Below are positions 36,303-41,159 of a stretch of DNA of 64,000 nucleotides, one piece after another. Origin of the DNA: Gordonia westfalica (GTDB lineage: Bacteria; Actinomycetota; Actinomycetes; Mycobacteriales; Mycobacteriaceae); assembly GCF_900105725.1 (NCBI RefSeq), contig NZ_FNLM01000034.1, positions 434,001 through 498,000 on the forward strand, given 5' to 3'. The position numbers and the translations under genes are program-made. Position 1 is the stretch's first letter. Each line of letters begins with the position of its first letter. Under the pieces are notes generated by a model, which did not search any database, was not told the DNA's origin, and saw nothing but the letters and a program-made list of their open reading frames with translations.

Positions 36303-36566
36303 TCACAGATGTCGGTACACGTCCTCGAGCTTCAGGCCCCGCTTGATCATCATCACCTGCAACCAGTAGACGAGCTGGGAGATCTCCTCACCCAGCGATT
36401 CGTCGGACTCGTGTTCGGCGGCGAGCCACACCTCGCCGGCTTCCTCGATGATCTTCTTGCCCAGGGTGTGCACACCCGAGTCGAGCGCGGCGACCGTGCC
36501 CGACCCCTCGGGGCGGTTCTCAGCCTTGTCGCTCAGTTCGGCGAACAGCTCCTCGAAGGTCTTCAC
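36303..36566 (-). CDS. hisE: Phosphoribosyl-ATP pyrophosphatase HisE
   Basis: Second histidine step: hydrolysis of phosphoribosyl-ATP. 87-residue all-helical MazG-like protein with metal-binding glutamates in [17 protein letters not shown] and [15 protein letters not shown]. The start is GTG 36566 ([14 protein letters not shown]); the longer frame upstream has no family similarity. Stand-alone, not fused to HisI. Heads the hisE-hisG pair and marks the left border of the accessory island. Confidence 0.94.
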
Positions 36567-36687
36567 CCCGACATTTTTGCACGTGAGCGGCACACCCCAA
36601 TCCGCTGGGTATTGATACGGCCATCGGAACTCGAGCTGGGTTAGTCTTGACTGCGCCACACCACGGGATCACGGGGGGGAACCGAGA

Positions 36688-37023
36688 ATGGCACCGAGAG
36701 ACGAAGTGAAGGTCGAACCTGCCGACCTCATCGACACCGGACAGACCTTTACGGAGGACGGGACAAACTTCGCCGCGCTGTCGCTACCAACCCTCGGAGC
36801 AACCGCCGCAGCGTGTGTCCCTGGATCGAAAGTCCAGGCCGCGCTCGCCGACGTCGACGAGCAGATGCTGGAAATGCGGCAGACCATCAGTGGACATTTG
36901 AAAAACCTTGGTGCATCGATCAGTGGTGCCGCGCACCTGTTCGTCGGGGCGGACGAAGCCGGGGTTGCCGCGATCACGTCGGTCAGTCCGCTCAACCAGC
37001 TTCCGCCGGATTGGCAGCCCTGA
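36688..37023 (+). CDS. EspC-like small protein, possible type VII secretion substrate
   Basis: 111 residues, predicted mostly helical, without signal peptide. It resembles the EspC/DUF2580 group of small ESX-associated proteins in length, N-terminal acidic start (VEPADLIDTGQTFTEDGTNF) and helical body. It has no WXG motif. A GGGGGG tract lies 8 bases before ATG 36688 and TAGTCT near 36645 could be the -10. The gene ends in a TGATG overlap with the next, so the two are probably made together, like secreted ESX pairs. Family assignment is moderate. Confidence 0.65.
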   Translation: MAPRDEVKVEPADLIDTGQTFTEDGTNFAALSLPTLGATAAACVPGSKVQAALADVDEQMLEMRQTISGHLKNLGASISGAAHLFVGADEAGVAAITSVSPLNQLPPDWQP

Positions 37024-37559
37024 TGGCAGTGCCCACACGAACGCAGGCACGACAGTGGAAATCAGCTTACGACCTGAATAACCAGGAATCGGTCTTGACG
37101 GCCATCGCCGACAAGCTCTTCGGGTTGGCGAAGTCCATCCCGCTGACCGTTGACAATCTCGCCTGGAGTGGCCACTCGCGGGGTGCCGCAGTCGGCGCCG
37201 CCGAAAGGCAGGGGGGCCAGGTGAGCCAGGCCGCGAGTGCAGTCGACGGATTACGTACCACGCTCGAGTCAACCGGTAGGACGATCGGCAACCTCGCCTC
37301 GACGTTGACCTCCGATGGCGACGGCCTCGTGACCGACGGGTTCTCCGTCTCCGAGACTTGGGAGGTCAAGGACACCTACGACTACGAGCTCATGAGATTG
37401 TTGGCCGGCGCCGCCGCCGAGGACTCCACCGTTTCGAACCAGATCGACACGATGCAGACCGAGCGTGCGAACACGGCGATCAGCGAGACGGTCCGGCTTC
37501 AGGCACTCGCGACGTCGTTGGGTGAAGCCGACACCAACGGGGCCGCTGCGCTGAACTAG
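37023..37559 (+). CDS. Helical partner protein in ESX-like island
   Basis: 178 residues, mainly alpha-helical with long Ala/Thr/Ser/Gln-rich stretches (AAVGAAERQGGQVSQAASAV). A near-WXG feature (NLAWSGHSRGAA) sits at the turn between the first two helices, at about residues 47-52. This is the size and layout of WXG100-like or DUF2563-like ESX partners, but I recognise no exact family. ATG 37023 overlaps the previous stop by one base. The next gene follows after 14 bases. Confidence 0.65.
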   Translation: MAVPTRTQARQWKSAYDLNNQESVLTAIADKLFGLAKSIPLTVDNLAWSGHSRGAAVGAAERQGGQVSQAASAVDGLRTTLESTGRTIGNLASTLTSDGDGLVTDGFSVSETWEVKDTYDYELMRLLAGAAAEDSTVSNQIDTMQTERANTAISETVRLQALATSLGEADTNGAAALN

Positions 37560-37573
37560 GAACGCTTGCAGAG

Positions 37574-39238
37574 ATGACACCGGTCACCGCAGGAATCTAT
37601 CCAGGTTCCGCGCGCGAAGACGCCGAGGCGATGGCGCGTGGCACGGCCACGACAGCCCAGATCGCACGCGCGAGAGCAGCGCTCGGGCTCACTAATGAGC
37701 AGGTCGCCGTCCTCAACAGCGGCGGGGAGATCACTCTCACCCCCGATCAAGCCACATACCTACGAGAGTTCTTGGGTTCGCAGAAGTCGGCATCGCTAGA
37801 GGACCTGCGGACGTTCGGAGACGCCCTCGCCCCAGAACTGAAAGGCGCAGCGAAGGGCATCCTCGCCGACGCACTGCAGGTCGGAACGAACCCAGGCGTG
37901 GTCGGACCGGGTTTCCAGGGCGGCTTGACCCAATCCCCCGACTCCGTGCGCGAACTGCTGAAGCGGAACCTTGCGAAGGAACTCCCCGGCGACACCGAGC
38001 CCTACAAGCGAATCAATCAGTTCAAGGCTCTGGTTGACGTACTCGAGCGAGGCGACGGCAGACTGCGCGCCGGCACCGACATCGACCGCGGGCTACTCAA
38101 ACAGGCTGCCGAGCTGCGGGGCGTCGGAGGATCAACGTGGGACCCCGACGTGGTTTCCGACATGCTGAAGATCGGGGGCGACGATCGCCCCGCAGTACAT
38201 TCATTCCTTACCGGCGCAGGTATGGAGGCAACGCTCGGCGACGGAGAGAAGTTCGAGAAGGATCACTACCTGGACCATCTCTTCGAGCACCGCTGGCGAG
38301 ACGATTCCGGATTCCGGAGCCTCCTCGACAACATCGGACAGGACGCCAAGGCAGACAACTTGGAGGTCCGCACGATGTCTGGGCAGGACAGCAGGGTCCT
38401 CACCCAGTACATGCTCGATCACAAAGAGCAGCTCATGTCGCTGGGGCAGCGAGATGGCGGGGTCGTGGACTCGCTGGGCAATGCGCTGGCTCCATTCATC
38501 CCGTCAATGGCCGGTGTTCCCGACGAGATCAGCGGCGCAGCGGGCTTCTTGCCGCTTTCCTCGGGCGACGACATGGAGACCGTCTTCGCGATCATCGACG
38601 GCAACGAGACCGCGGCAATTCATTTCAACGCAGCGGCTGCGGCTCAGATCGGCCAGCTGAACCAGCTCTATGCCACCGGGATTGTTCACGGCGAGGACGA
38701 CCCAGCACTGGCGACGTGGGCAGGTCGCATCGACCATGCGATGAGTACAGGTATGAACGCTCAGATCGAGCACCAATTCGAGGACGCGTCCGATCGCCAC
38801 AGTTACAAAGCCAAGGTGTACAGCGGGTTCGTCAACGCGACCGGCGGAGTTTTGGCAGCGGCACCCGGAGGCCCCGTTACGTATCCTGCGCTCATGGTCG
38901 CCGCACCATTCGCCCAGGACATGGTCATCGGCGGTGCACCGTCGCTCGACCAATTCGGCGCGTCCGAGCAGGACATCATCACCGCCAATCACGCGGGCAG
39001 CGAGAATCGACGCTATTACGACGTGTTCGAAGAATTGGTCAAGGCCGACAAAATCGATCCCGCCCATCCCGATTACGCCAGCCTGTTCCGAGACGGGAAA
39101 CTAATACCTTACGAGGAGCTCGCTCACTCAGGCGACGCCGCAACGACCCTTACCCAGATGTCCGGCAAGGTTATGCAACTCACACCCAGCGAGTTCGAGC
39201 AAGCTTGGGACAACGGACACAATTCGAACTGGAAATGA
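37574..39238 (+). CDS. 554-residue protein, mycobacterial TPR-region type, ESX-like island
   Basis: Largest gene of the island. The N-terminus (MTPVTAGIYPGSAREDAEAM) has no signal peptide. The body is helical; it is reminiscent of mycobacterial proteins annotated as TPR-repeat-region proteins near ESX small proteins, e.g. the block GGDDRPAVHSFLTG followed by DHYLDHLFEHRW. A Gly/Ala/Pro-rich hydrophobic stretch at about 417-455 (GGVLAAAPGGPVTYPALMVA) may insert into membrane. The C-terminal 80 residues could be an effector region but show no known toxin motif. Codon third positions look less GC-rich than in flanking genes. Role unknown; delivery by a type VII system is an inference. Confidence 0.6.
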   Translation: MTPVTAGIYPGSAREDAEAMARGTATTAQIARARAALGLTNEQVAVLNSGGEITLTPDQATYLREFLGSQKSASLEDLRTFGDALAPELKGAAKGILADALQVGTNPGVVGPGFQGGLTQSPDSVRELLKRNLAKELPGDTEPYKRINQFKALVDVLERGDGRLRAGTDIDRGLLKQAAELRGVGGSTWDPDVVSDMLKIGGDDRPAVHSFLTGAGMEATLGDGEKFEKDHYLDHLFEHRWRDDSGFRSLLDNIGQDAKADNLEVRTMSGQDSRVLTQYMLDHKEQLMSLGQRDGGVVDSLGNALAPFIPSMAGVPDEISGAAGFLPLSSGDDMETVFAIIDGNETAAIHFNAAAAAQIGQLNQLYATGIVHGEDDPALATWAGRIDHAMSTGMNAQIEHQFEDASDRHSYKAKVYSGFVNATGGVLAAAPGGPVTYPALMVAAPFAQDMVIGGAPSLDQFGASEQDIITANHAGSENRRYYDVFEELVKADKIDPAHPDYASLFRDGKLIPYEELAHSGDAATTLTQMSGKVMQLTPSEFEQAWDNGHNSNWK

Positions 39239-39247
39239 CTCGGGCGA

Positions 39248-40030
39248 ATGCGTAAGACACTATCGGCAATCCTTGTCGCGGCCTGCGTTGCATGCCTCGT
39301 CGCGTGTACCGACCCGACCACCACAGATGCCACCAGCAACTCCGACGCCGGCGTGTACAAGCCACCCCCGTTCGCCGCGTACTCGGCGCGATGGTCTGCA
39401 CCGCCGAATATCGACCTCACCTCGCAGCCAGCGGTTTCGGTGCGAGCTTTCTTCGAATCCGCCTACCTCGCAAGTTCATTGGCGCCACGGTACGGCTATC
39501 CAGGATTCGCCGAACAGGTCTCGCCGCCAACCCAATTCGGCGTGTTCAACATAGCGGGTTTGAAACCCGCGGACATTTCACTGCTCACCGGAACCCAGTA
39601 CATGCATATCGCGCGTCTGGATTTCGATCGCGTAGACGCGCATTGGAATGCGGTGGTGTGCACTTGGTCGAACGGCATGACCCAGCAGACGGACGATGAC
39701 CGCCAGAAGATCGGCGGACCTTGGCGATCTAACAAGGTAACCCCGGCGACGATCAGTCTACGTCCACCCGAGGGCGTCGCTGATGCCACGACCCGCCCTC
39801 ACAGCGCAGGCCGGGGTCCGTCTCGCTATCCGGTCACCGACGTCTTCGGCGACTGGAGGACCGTCGCCGCAACCTATTACGAAGGGGCAGAGATGGCGAC
39901 GTGCGATGCGTTGACCGACAGCGTCCTTCCGCCCGAGCTCCGCCATATCGATGCGGCCCACGAGTATCGGACGACTCCCCTCCCCACTCTCCCGCCGTAC
40001 CCCGGCTGGTCGATCGCGAACAAGGCCTGA
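39248..40030 (+). CDS. Lipoprotein of the ESX-like island
   Basis: 260 residues. The N-terminus is a lipoprotein signal: MRKTLSAILVAACVACLVAC with lipobox LVAC and lipidated Cys20. The mature part begins Thr/Ser/Asp-rich, then a folded domain with two further cysteines (VVCTW, MATCDAL). It starts 9 bases after the 554-residue gene, so same operon. No recognised family. As a surface protein encoded after putative secreted partners, it could protect the cell or help assembly, but that is speculation. Confidence 0.65.
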   Translation: MRKTLSAILVAACVACLVACTDPTTTDATSNSDAGVYKPPPFAAYSARWSAPPNIDLTSQPAVSVRAFFESAYLASSLAPRYGYPGFAEQVSPPTQFGVFNIAGLKPADISLLTGTQYMHIARLDFDRVDAHWNAVVCTWSNGMTQQTDDDRQKIGGPWRSNKVTPATISLRPPEGVADATTRPHSAGRGPSRYPVTDVFGDWRTVAATYYEGAEMATCDALTDSVLPPELRHIDAAHEYRTTPLPTLPPYPGWSIANKA

Positions 40031-40031
40031 C

Positions 40032-40433
40032 ATGAGCAGAGCTCAGCAGCGAATACCGCCGTACATTCTCGCCGCCGGACGCCGCGGCGCGCGTCCCGGC
40101 GAACTCGACGAACTACGTAGGCTGATCGCCGCACGGGCCGCACAGCACCCAGGACGGAACTCACCGGCTGCCATGCCCGGAACCTACGCGTCTGAGGCGT
40201 TTGATTCCCAGACCTGGGAACGAGACATGGAGCGATGGTGCACCGATCCCCGTGAGCGGGTGAACGAGTACACCCGGCGCGTGGATTTGCTGATCCACGA
40301 CCGCTACCGGCTCGGCGCTCCCATCGATGAGGACCACGTCGCGAAGCTACGTGAGTCGGTCAGGCGCGCTTATCTAGCGGAGTTGCAGAGCTTCCTCGAT
40401 AATCACCCGGACATCGCATACCGCAACGCCTGA
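40032..40433 (+). CDS. Small hypothetical protein ending the island
   Basis: 133 residues, basic and charged, no signal or membrane segment. The C-terminal half is helical and Arg/Glu/Asp-rich (ERVNEYTRRVDLLIHDRY; LRESVRRAYLAELQSFL). ATG 40032 is 1 base after the preceding TGA, so translation is probably coupled. I do not recognise it. It is convergent with the HAD gene 15 bases away, marking the right border of the island. Confidence 0.6.
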   Translation: MSRAQQRIPPYILAAGRRGARPGELDELRRLIAARAAQHPGRNSPAAMPGTYASEAFDSQTWERDMERWCTDPRERVNEYTRRVDLLIHDRYRLGAPIDEDHVAKLRESVRRAYLAELQSFLDNHPDIAYRNA

Positions 40434-40448
40434 CCGACCGTGCCCGGC

Positions 40449-41159
40449 TCACGCCGTCCTATCAGGCTGGAGTCGGCCGGTCCATGCCTCGGTGACGTCG
40501 TCGAGTCCCATTCCGACCAGAGAGCGTCGAAACACCCGTAACGGGCCACGCTGAACCGGTGCCGCGGATTCGACGACGAGGGTGGGACATCCGGCCGCCG
40601 TCGCGGCTTCGGCGCCGGTCGGAGAGTCCTCCACCGCCAGACAATCGGCGGTCGGCAGCCCGAGCAGTTCCGCGGCGCGCATGTACGGATCGGGAGCGGG
40701 TTTGCCGACGGCGACCTCGTCACCACAGACCGTGGTCGCAAAGCGATGACGGCCGATCGTTCCCAGCGCCACATCGGCCGCCTCACGCACCGTGTTGGTG
40801 ACCAGCGCCATCGGGATGCCGGCGCCGGCGATCAGTTCCAGCGCCTCGAGTGCGCCGGGTCGCCACGGGAGTCCCTCTTGGAAGAGCTCGGTCACCCGGT
40901 CCAGCGTCCGTCGTCCATCGGCGGCGGGATCCCGGTCCTCGGCCGGAATCCCGACTGCGTCGTGGAGTTTCGCCAGCGCGTCGGGAAGGGAGTTGCCGAG
41001 CGTCGATTCGCGCAGCTGCGGGGTCATCGCGATGCCGTGGTGTGCCGCCAGCTCGGTCATCGCGATCTCCCAAATCGGCTCGGAGTCGAGCAGGGTGCCG
41101 TCCATGTCCCAGAGGACGGCGGCGGGAAGACGGAACGCGGAATCAGGGGTGTCGGTCAC
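40449..41159 (-). CDS. HAD-superfamily phosphatase
   Basis: 236 residues, subfamily IA beta-phosphoglucomutase/phosphatase type. Motif I is VLWDMDGTLLDSEP with both catalytic aspartates; motif II is ALVTNTVRE; motif III/IV is GKPAPDPYMRAAELL and CLAVEDSPTGAEAA. The substrate cannot be told from sequence. GTG 41159 overlaps the XRE stop as GTGA, so it is translated with the regulator. Confidence 0.88.
   Translation of the reverse strand: MTDTPDSAFRLPAAVLWDMDGTLLDSEPIWEIAMTELAAHHGIAMTPQLRESTLGNSLPDALAKLHDAVGIPAEDRDPAADGRRTLDRVTELFQEGLPWRPGALEALELIAGAGIPMALVTNTVREAADVALGTIGRHRFATTVCGDEVAVGKPAPDPYMRAAELLGLPTADCLAVEDSPTGAEAATAAGCPTLVVESAAPVQRGPLRVFRRSLVGMGLDDVTEAWTGRLQPDRTA

What the first reader, a model, noticed from the sequence alone, without database searches (positions are those of the whole stretch)
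36688..40433. Five-gene ESX-linked-looking island with unassigned 554-residue protein and lipoprotein
Seen: two small helical proteins in TGATG overlap, then a 554-residue protein, a lipoprotein (lipobox LVAC, Cys20) and a small basic protein, all on one strand with gaps of 14 bases or less. Base and codon use look less GC-rich than in the surrounding housekeeping genes. Known: ESX (type VII) substrates are small helical pairs without signal peptides, and EspC-like proteins belong to that world. Inference: the operon may encode a secreted pair plus a large cargo or scaffold and a surface lipoprotein, a possible uncharacterised type VII-dependent module without core esx genes nearby. I could not assign the 554- and 133-residue proteins to a known activity.
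Basis: partly seen in the sequence, partly recalled or inferred. Interest (0 to 1): 0.7.

Follow-up and report, generated by a model that had tools for sequence, protein, structure and literature searches.

The report
Split secreted effector with matched lipoprotein
The five genes are an inserted copy of a widespread actinobacterial gene set that probably exports a protein together with a matching surface lipoprotein, but here the exported protein's gene is broken in two, which is why its pieces looked unfamiliar.

Summary
The five genes are real, but the inventory changes. Genes 2 (178 aa) and 3 (554 aa) are the two halves of one protein that 35 close relatives read in one frame: a WXG-type head followed by a TPR_23 "EspA-like" body. 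Gene 1 is the EspC-like partner, gene 4 the usual downstream lipoprotein, gene 5 a loosely linked small gene. The set is a 3.9-kb insertion between two genes that are adjacent in 43 of 58 other same-genus genomes; its body and lipoprotein group with Nocardia-type copies, and the genome has two unsplit paralogues.

The new result concerns the family. Lipoprotein identity follows the C-terminal part of the exported protein (partial r 0.66; 0 of 2000 permutations as high), not its N-part (0.02). In two orthologous pairs DNA identity falls at the C-part, stays low through the lipoprotein and recovers in the next gene. A headless C-part-plus-lipoprotein locus and extra lipoproteins also occur. This is the signature of effector-immunity (or ligand-receptor) pairs, probably exported by ESX-4. 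Toxicity is not shown and no toxin domain was recognised. Whether the split copy works is open; a retired effector that keeps its lipoprotein is the plainest reading.

The parts
36567..40469 (+). inserted stretch (3.9 kb) between hisE (left, - strand) and a HAD-family gene (right, - strand)
   Evidence: blastn edges against the three relatives L057-L059: left homology ends at 36566, right homology starts at 40470; with L060, L061 and L063 the left match runs 18-27 bases further. HAD and hisE within 120 bp in 43 of 58 other same-genus genomes.
36688..37023 (+). gene 1, EspC-like partner, 111 aa, FxxxD near the C-terminus (F85-D89)
   Evidence: aligned with the upstream genes of 12 other loci; 5 of the 13 members match PF10824 EspC at E<=0.1, best 4.1e-6, the window's own not among them
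37023..37559 (+). gene 2, N-terminal WXG-type head of the exported protein, 178 aa, W48-S-G50
   Evidence: matches residues about 1-180 of the single-frame relatives; found at 4e-34 by a head profile built without it
37574..39238 (+). gene 3, body of the same protein, 554 aa: TPR_23 region (residues 36-246) and the part that varies with the lipoprotein (I used residues 131-554 as C-part)
   Evidence: PF23275 141 bits; aligns from about residue 183 of relatives to their C-terminus
39248..40030 (+). gene 4, lipoprotein, 260 aa, lipobox LVAC with Cys20
   Evidence: family alignment with invariant W49, R66, E70, C138, FG-W (200-203), PGW (252-254); nearest lipoprotein within 400 bp in 31 of 35 close members; model of mean pLDDT 72.5, signal helix plus alpha/beta domain
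40032..40433 (+). gene 5, small protein, 133 aa, weakly linked to the unit
   Evidence: aligns by its N-terminal PPYILAA stretch with small genes after the lipoprotein in L016, L018, L019, L023 and L014; such genes found in 11 of 63 full-length loci by a profile that included the window; BLAST hit only in L032

Best explanation
A laterally acquired extra copy of a chromosomal type VII effector unit. In unsplit relatives an EspC-like protein pairs with the WXG head of a TPR_23 protein of about 730-850 residues (inferred from family likeness), the pair leaves through the only ESX system found, ESX-4 (inferred), and the C-terminal part acts at or beyond the cell envelope (inferred). The lipoprotein encoded next sits outside the membrane (lipobox shown) and recognises that C-terminal part (inferred from joint inheritance, which is shown), most likely as immunity protein for producer and kin. 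C-part and lipoprotein are exchanged together behind a conserved head (shown by alignment). In this window head and body lie in different frames at their boundary (shown); most likely the body is no longer exported as a fused effector while the intact lipoprotein still protects the cell (inferred).
For: One protein in two frames. Unit conserved: EspC-like gene upstream in 32 of 35 and lipoprotein downstream in 31 of 35 close members, 37 and 46 of all 63 full-length loci. Lipoprotein identity follows the C-part given head and N-part (partial r 0.656, 0 of 2000 permutations, maximum 0.273) and not the N-part given head and C-part (0.02), 28 loci. DNA identity of L029/L110: 0.87-0.95 over the head, 0.48-0.73 over most of C-part and lipoprotein, 0.93 in the next gene; L026/L030 alike. 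C-part plus lipoprotein without a head in L080; further lipoproteins in 9 loci. One EccC over cut-off in the genome, beside rpsI, phosphoglucomutase and LytB family genes. Nocardia-type relatives of body (99/99) and lipoprotein (100/99). Precedents: TslA with lipoprotein TilA (PMC10730906, abstract and passages); prophage WXG-100 toxins whose immunity protein follows the C-terminal variant, some lipoproteins (PMC8092301, passages).
Against: No toxin domain in any of the 20 aligned members; C-part alleles stay alignable rather than being unrelated domains. No hydrophobic segment typical of a pore in the bodies checked (highest 19-residue mean 1.40). Some pairs fit loosely: L028/L030 and L030/L109 have C-part 0.80 and 0.77 but lipoprotein 0.51. 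Four of 35 close members showed no lipoprotein within 400 bp, one of them at a contig end. Gene 1 and gene 5 have their best BLAST matches in same-genus genomes, not in the Nocardia-type ones. EccB, EccD and mycosin next to EccC were not identified: four of eight ORFs scanned there had no Pfam hit. Export and toxicity untested.
Confidence: 0.5

Rival explanations
1. Docking rather than immunity: the lipoprotein is the producer's own surface anchor or receptor for the exported TPR_23 protein (adhesin, envelope scaffold, uptake aid), and both vary together because phages, hosts or neighbours favour new surface types.
For: Joint inheritance and cassette exchange fit any specific pair; no toxin domain; alleles stay alignable.
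Against: Second and third lipoproteins beside one effector gene (9 loci) and a C-part-plus-lipoprotein locus without an export head (L080) are what immunity pairs are known for (PMC3482391 and PMC10730906, passages).
Confidence: 0.3
2. The split is functional: genes 2 and 3 are made from one message and assemble as a two-chain effector with gene 1, so that the window copy is exported and active.
For: The break lies at the boundary of head and body, gene 3 has its own ATG 14 bases after the stop of gene 2; both keep family residues: gene 2 10 of 10, gene 3 15 of 18, gene 4 12 of 12; gene 3 has no other interruption.
Against: No second locus with this same split was found among those fetched; 35 close members are in one frame, though that list was filtered for long frames. 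Gene 3 has a long branch in the tree (1.78).
Confidence: 0.2
3. Sequence or assembly error: the gene is unsplit in the living strain.
For: One other public protein, P0002, reads through the junction of genes 2 and 3 with otherwise the same residues.
Against: P0002 itself leaves the family's frame further on, so its record is not dependable; the 554-residue protein is listed with 7 member sequences, although what these are was not shown.
Confidence: 0.2

Closest known systems
PF23275 TPR_23 proteins ('TPR repeat region-containing protein' or 'hypothetical protein' in Gordonia)
   Same: Gene 3 is a member by sequence; relatives have the same neighbours
   Different: The window copy is split into head and body; nearest relatives are Nocardia-type, about 31% identical
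EspA/EspC pair of ESX-1 (recalled; EspC via PF10824)
   Same: EspC-like small protein next to an EspA-like helical substrate
   Different: EspC-like gene comes first, body much larger with TPR_23, lipoprotein partner, and a genome with a single EccC over cut-off
TslA-TlaA1-TlaA2-TilA of Staphylococcus aureus (PMC10730906, abstract and passages)
   Same: Type VII substrate with small helical partners and a lipoprotein partner that varies in copy number and sequence
   Different: TslA is a phospholipase with reversed domain order; here head first, no enzyme recognised, no sequence relation tested
WXG-100 polymorphic toxin-immunity cassettes of Mycobacterium abscessus prophages (PMC8092301, passages)
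   Same: WXG head, small partner, C-terminal variation matched by the immunity protein, some immunity proteins lipoproteins
   Different: Chromosomal set in this case, TPR_23 body, EspC-like partner, C-part alleles of one alignable kind; no prophage genes recognised in the five (one weak tape-measure match of gene 2)

Membership tests
TPR_23, EspA-like (PF23275) | Profile match over the curated cut-off | tested here: met
   gene 3, 141.2 bits against 27, profile positions 2-227 of 234
TPR_23, EspA-like (PF23275) | Head and body in one protein, as in relatives | tested here: not met
   two genes in different frames in the window; one frame in 35 close members
EspC family (PF10824) | Profile match | tested here: inconclusive
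   gene 1 itself has no match at E<=0.1 to PF10824, only DUF6317 below cut-off; 5 of 13 aligned relatives match EspC
ESX / type VII substrate | C-terminal YxxxD/E on one partner | tested here: inconclusive
   gene 1 has FxxxD; of 13 members 3 have Y and 5 have F at this place with D/E four on, 5 have I or V (read); none read in gene 2
ESX / type VII substrate | WXG turn in the partner | tested here: met
   W48-S-G50 in gene 2; W and G nearly invariant in the family; 4 of 20 members match WXG100 at E<=0.1, best 0.001
ESX / type VII substrate | ESX-dependent export | not testable with these tools
   needs secretome of an eccC mutant
Polymorphic toxin-immunity system | Constant N-terminus with variable C-terminus | tested here: met
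   in relatives: e.g. L014/L016 head 0.89, N-part 0.91, C-part 0.42; sliding and DNA profiles
Polymorphic toxin-immunity system | Neighbouring partner gene that varies with the C-terminus | tested here: met
   partial r 0.656 for lipoprotein with C-part, 0.02 with N-part, 28 loci
Polymorphic toxin-immunity system | Orphan cassettes or extra immunity genes | tested here: met
   L080 without head; further lipoproteins in L032, L076, L077, L104, L113, L114 and, in longer or broken frames, L073, L014, L024
Polymorphic toxin-immunity system | Recognisable toxin domain | tested here: not met
   no toxin family in Pfam scans of 20 members; weak unrelated hits only
Polymorphic toxin-immunity system | Toxicity neutralised by the cognate partner only | not testable with these tools
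   needs bench work

The most novel reading that the evidence does not exclude
A chromosomal ESX-4 self-recognition system of Gordonia, Williamsia and Nocardia: an EspC-like protein carries out a TPR_23 effector whose C-terminal part and envelope lipoprotein form matched alleles, swapped as a cassette behind a conserved export head, so that strains are told apart by their pairs. The window shows a third pair in one genome, from a Nocardia-type source, with the head cut off and the lipoprotein kept: immunity without the weapon.
Probability: 0.4. Interest if true: 0.72.

Novelty: new variant of a known kind. Interest (0 to 1): 0.55.

Why it matters
A review passage calls ESX-4 the most ancestral ESX system and the only one of non-mycobacterial members such as Nocardia and Gordonia (PMC11217815, two passages). 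What it exports there is, to my knowledge, little known. A common substrate with a co-varying lipoprotein gives a directly testable candidate and turns a family named only 'TPR repeat region-containing protein' into a proposed recognition or competition system. Searches of the held open-licence papers (I saw listings of 15, 0, 20, 2, 12, 2 and 10 papers, of 40, 0, 45, 2, 69, 2 and 10 found) showed no title or abstract start that describes this pair; subscription journals are mostly not held.

Tried and rejected
Considered and set aside. (1) A separate 554-residue cargo: genes 2 and 3 are one protein elsewhere. (2) Phage or defence origin: no PADLOC hit; one PHROGs hit, gene 2 to a tape-measure family at 1.1e-4, taken as helical likeness. 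(3) EspK-like chaperone: a paper passage ties Rv3899c, Rv0029 and Rv2082 to the fold of EspK (PMC9811218, one passage); I found no link to gene 3 and tested none by structure. (4) A mycobacterial counterpart (Rv2078-Rv2080) came to mind from memory; a search found no paper and I did not fetch or test it. (5) Solved structures by sequence: best E 0.053 (citrate synthase) for the body profile and 0.95 for the lipoprotein profile, taken as chance. (6) Promoter and terminator scans: none found. (7) NCBIfam: nothing near a cut-off.

Limits. The 35 close members (proteins; the genome's own two other copies are among them) passed E<1e-150 and a frame over 650 aa, so broken copies were filtered out by design. 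Broken, short or headless ones seen: L021, L078, L079, L080, L088, a G271 copy. The 28-locus test left out L017, L031, L033 and L071 (no lipoprotein within 400 bp; L031 has only 132 bases downstream) and L014, L025b and L101 (no EspC-like match within 300 bp). Pairs of loci are not independent; the permutation shuffles whole loci. The EspC, body, lipoprotein and gene 5 profiles included the window's sequences; the head profile did not. L014/L016 could not be aligned at the DNA level beyond the C-part.
Full report
What is there. The five ORFs lie as described, with a TGATG overlap, gaps of 14, 9 and 1 bases and an LVAC lipobox at Cys20 of gene 4. Pfam names only gene 3 over a cut-off: PF23275 TPR_23, 'ESX-1 secretion-associated protein EspA-like, TPR repeats', 141 bits. 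NCBIfam gives nothing near a cut-off and PADLOC nothing. In 101 genomes (the own one and 100 relatives) 26 have a match to gene 3; the best outside the genome is 31% identical, and the stronger matches lie in frames of 733-936 aa.

Two genes that are one. Against the ORFs of 20 fetched loci, gene 2 matches residues about 1-180 and gene 3 matches from about residue 183 onwards of one and the same protein. A head profile built without the window finds gene 2 at 4e-34. The 35 close members (E<1e-150, frame over 650 aa) are read in one frame. L021 is broken by an in-frame stop at another place. A public protein from another contig, P0002, reads through the junction of genes 2 and 3 but leaves the family's frame further on: another record of nearly the same sequence differs here, and it is not clear which is right. 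The gene 3 protein is listed with 7 member sequences. Of the residues invariant in the other members gene 2 keeps 10 of 10, gene 4 12 of 12 and gene 3 15 of 18; four unbroken members also miss 3 or 4.

The unit. An EspC-like gene stands within 300 bp upstream in 32 of the 35 close members and a lipoprotein of one family within 400 bp downstream in 31 of 35; over all 63 full-length proteins examined, distant ones included, the figures are 37 and 46. Gene 1 aligns with those upstream genes; 5 of 13, the window's not among them, match EspC PF10824 at E<=0.1. The heads carry a nearly invariant W-x-G; 4 of 20 match WXG100 at E<=0.1. The lipoproteins share invariant positions, including a cysteine (C138; C219 in at least 90%), FG-W and a PGW tail, and match no Pfam family beyond one chance hit. 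The gene 4 model (mean pLDDT 72.5) is a signal helix plus an alpha/beta domain. Gene 5 is the weakest link: an N-terminal likeness to small genes after the lipoprotein, found in 11 of 63 loci with a profile that included it. Named carriers are Gordonia, Williamsia, Nocardia and Speluncibacter, 12 loci. In an even draw from the order 41 of 397 genomes, in 10 of 85 genera, have PF23275.

An insertion. hisE and the HAD gene lie within 120 bp of each other in 43 of 58 other same-genus genomes; 15 have more between them, up to 2.1 kb. In the window 3.9 kb intervenes, with blastn edges at 36566 and 40470 against the closest relatives, and a left match 18-27 bases longer in three others. GC is about 5 points below the flanks. 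In trees the gene 3 protein joins Nocardia aurantiaca and three members of an unnamed genus of the same family (99/99), the gene 4 protein the same three (100/99). The unnamed genus is probably Nocardia: its L086 is 79-87% identical to the Nocardia locus L079 along head, N-part and the C-part piece. The gene 3 branch is long, so its exact place is unsure. Against a single source, the best BLAST matches of genes 1 and 5 are in same-genus genomes, weak though they are. The genome has two further, unsplit copies, which fall with Gordonia copies.

The cassette. L014 and L016 are 0.75-0.97 identical in sliding windows up to about residue 310 and 0.25-0.60 after it. I split each protein into head, N-part (gene 3 residues 1-130) and C-part and compared identities over the 28 loci with EspC-like gene, effector and lipoprotein. 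Lipoprotein identity follows the C-part with head and N-part held constant (partial r 0.656; 0 of 2000 permutations as high, maximum 0.273) and not the N-part with head and C-part held constant (0.02). The EspC-like gene follows the head given the C-part (0.71) more than the C-part given the head (0.30). Fourteen pairs have head >=0.80 and N-part >=0.70. By C-part they run from 0.90, 0.90, 0.89 with lipoprotein 0.73, 0.85, 0.76 down to 0.44, 0.44, 0.42 with lipoprotein 0.32, 0.34, 0.34; two pairs in between have C-part 0.80 and 0.77 but lipoprotein only 0.51. With pairs lacking an EspC match there are 21, Spearman 0.89, the pairs not being independent.

DNA profiles. L029/L110: 0.83-0.99 upstream, 0.87-0.95 over the head, 0.48-0.73 from about base 1050 of the gene through the lipoprotein, 0.93 in the next gene. 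L026/L030: 0.74-0.83 over the head, 0.37-0.66 over C-part and lipoprotein, 0.89 after it, though upstream of the EspC-like gene the two differ. L027/L110 shows a milder fall (0.57-0.83), L028/L030 a fall mainly at the gene's end and the lipoprotein, L015/L027 only a dip near the start of the lipoprotein. The first two look like replacement of a segment, not like a uniformly fast gene. Further signs: L080 has C-part plus lipoprotein and no head or N-part in its 2.4 kb upstream; L079 has head, N-part and a shortened C-part with no lipoprotein found; L078 is short too. Further lipoproteins stand in L032, L076, L077, L104, L113 and L114 and, in longer or broken frames, in L073, L014 and L024.

Mechanism. 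Shown: the anatomy, the lipobox, the joint inheritance. Inferred: pairing of EspC-like protein and WXG head, export, and the meeting of lipoprotein and C-part outside the membrane. The genome has one EccC over cut-off (971.6 bits; the other separate hit, 96.6 bits, is well below it), beside rpsI, phosphoglucomutase and LytB family genes, which is the ESX-4 place as I recall it; a review passage makes ESX-4 the only type VII system of Gordonia and Nocardia (PMC11217815). EccB, EccD and mycosin were not identified there. The content parallels TslA with helical partners and the immunity lipoprotein TilA (PMC10730906, abstract and passages) and the WXG-100 toxin cassettes of M. abscessus prophages, where the immunity protein follows the toxin's C-terminal variant and is sometimes a lipoprotein (PMC8092301, passages). 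A 2012 survey lists WXG export heads and tandem 'polyimmunity' loci (PMC3482391, passages). I therefore hold effector and immunity most likely, with a matched surface pair without killing as main rival. Against it: no recognised toxin domain in 20 members, and C-parts that stay alignable.

The window copy. With its head in another frame, the body probably no longer leaves as part of the same chain, while the lipoprotein is intact. A retired effector with a kept immunity gene is the plainest reading; a working two-chain form and a sequence error are not excluded.

Noticed in passing
window 36303-36659: The longest hisE ORF (118 aa) starts inside the inserted stretch; most same-genus matches cover only its last 87-90 residues, so the true start is probably at about 36566, and hisE/hisG now lie behind foreign upstream DNA.
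   Followed up: partly
L014 9174-10749 (own genome, beside the 826-aa paralogue): Behind the lipoprotein lies a 199-aa frame that joins a gene-5-like start to a near copy of the end of the neighbouring effector, then a lipoprotein in two broken frames and another gene-5-like gene: a duplicated, partly decayed cassette.
   Followed up: partly
L021 5419-7764: Another relative with its effector gene interrupted, by an in-frame TAG inside the body, in a genome given as one contig.
   Followed up: partly
L078 1985-4787 (Nocardia jejuensis): Here too an EspC-like/head/body unit, with a short body, sits beside a hisG-like ORF, on the other side of the his genes than in the window: the his neighbourhood may be a repeated landing place.
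   Followed up: no
L095 764-3186: Behind a distant 738-aa relative lie three frames of 327-348 aa that each match part of the body profile, perhaps an array of partial effectors.
   Followed up: no
L032 2326-4448: Three lipoproteins of the family in tandem behind one effector gene.
   Followed up: no
HAD-hisE gap in same-genus genomes: 15 of 58 genomes have 138-2065 bp between the two genes; what lies there was not read.
   Followed up: no
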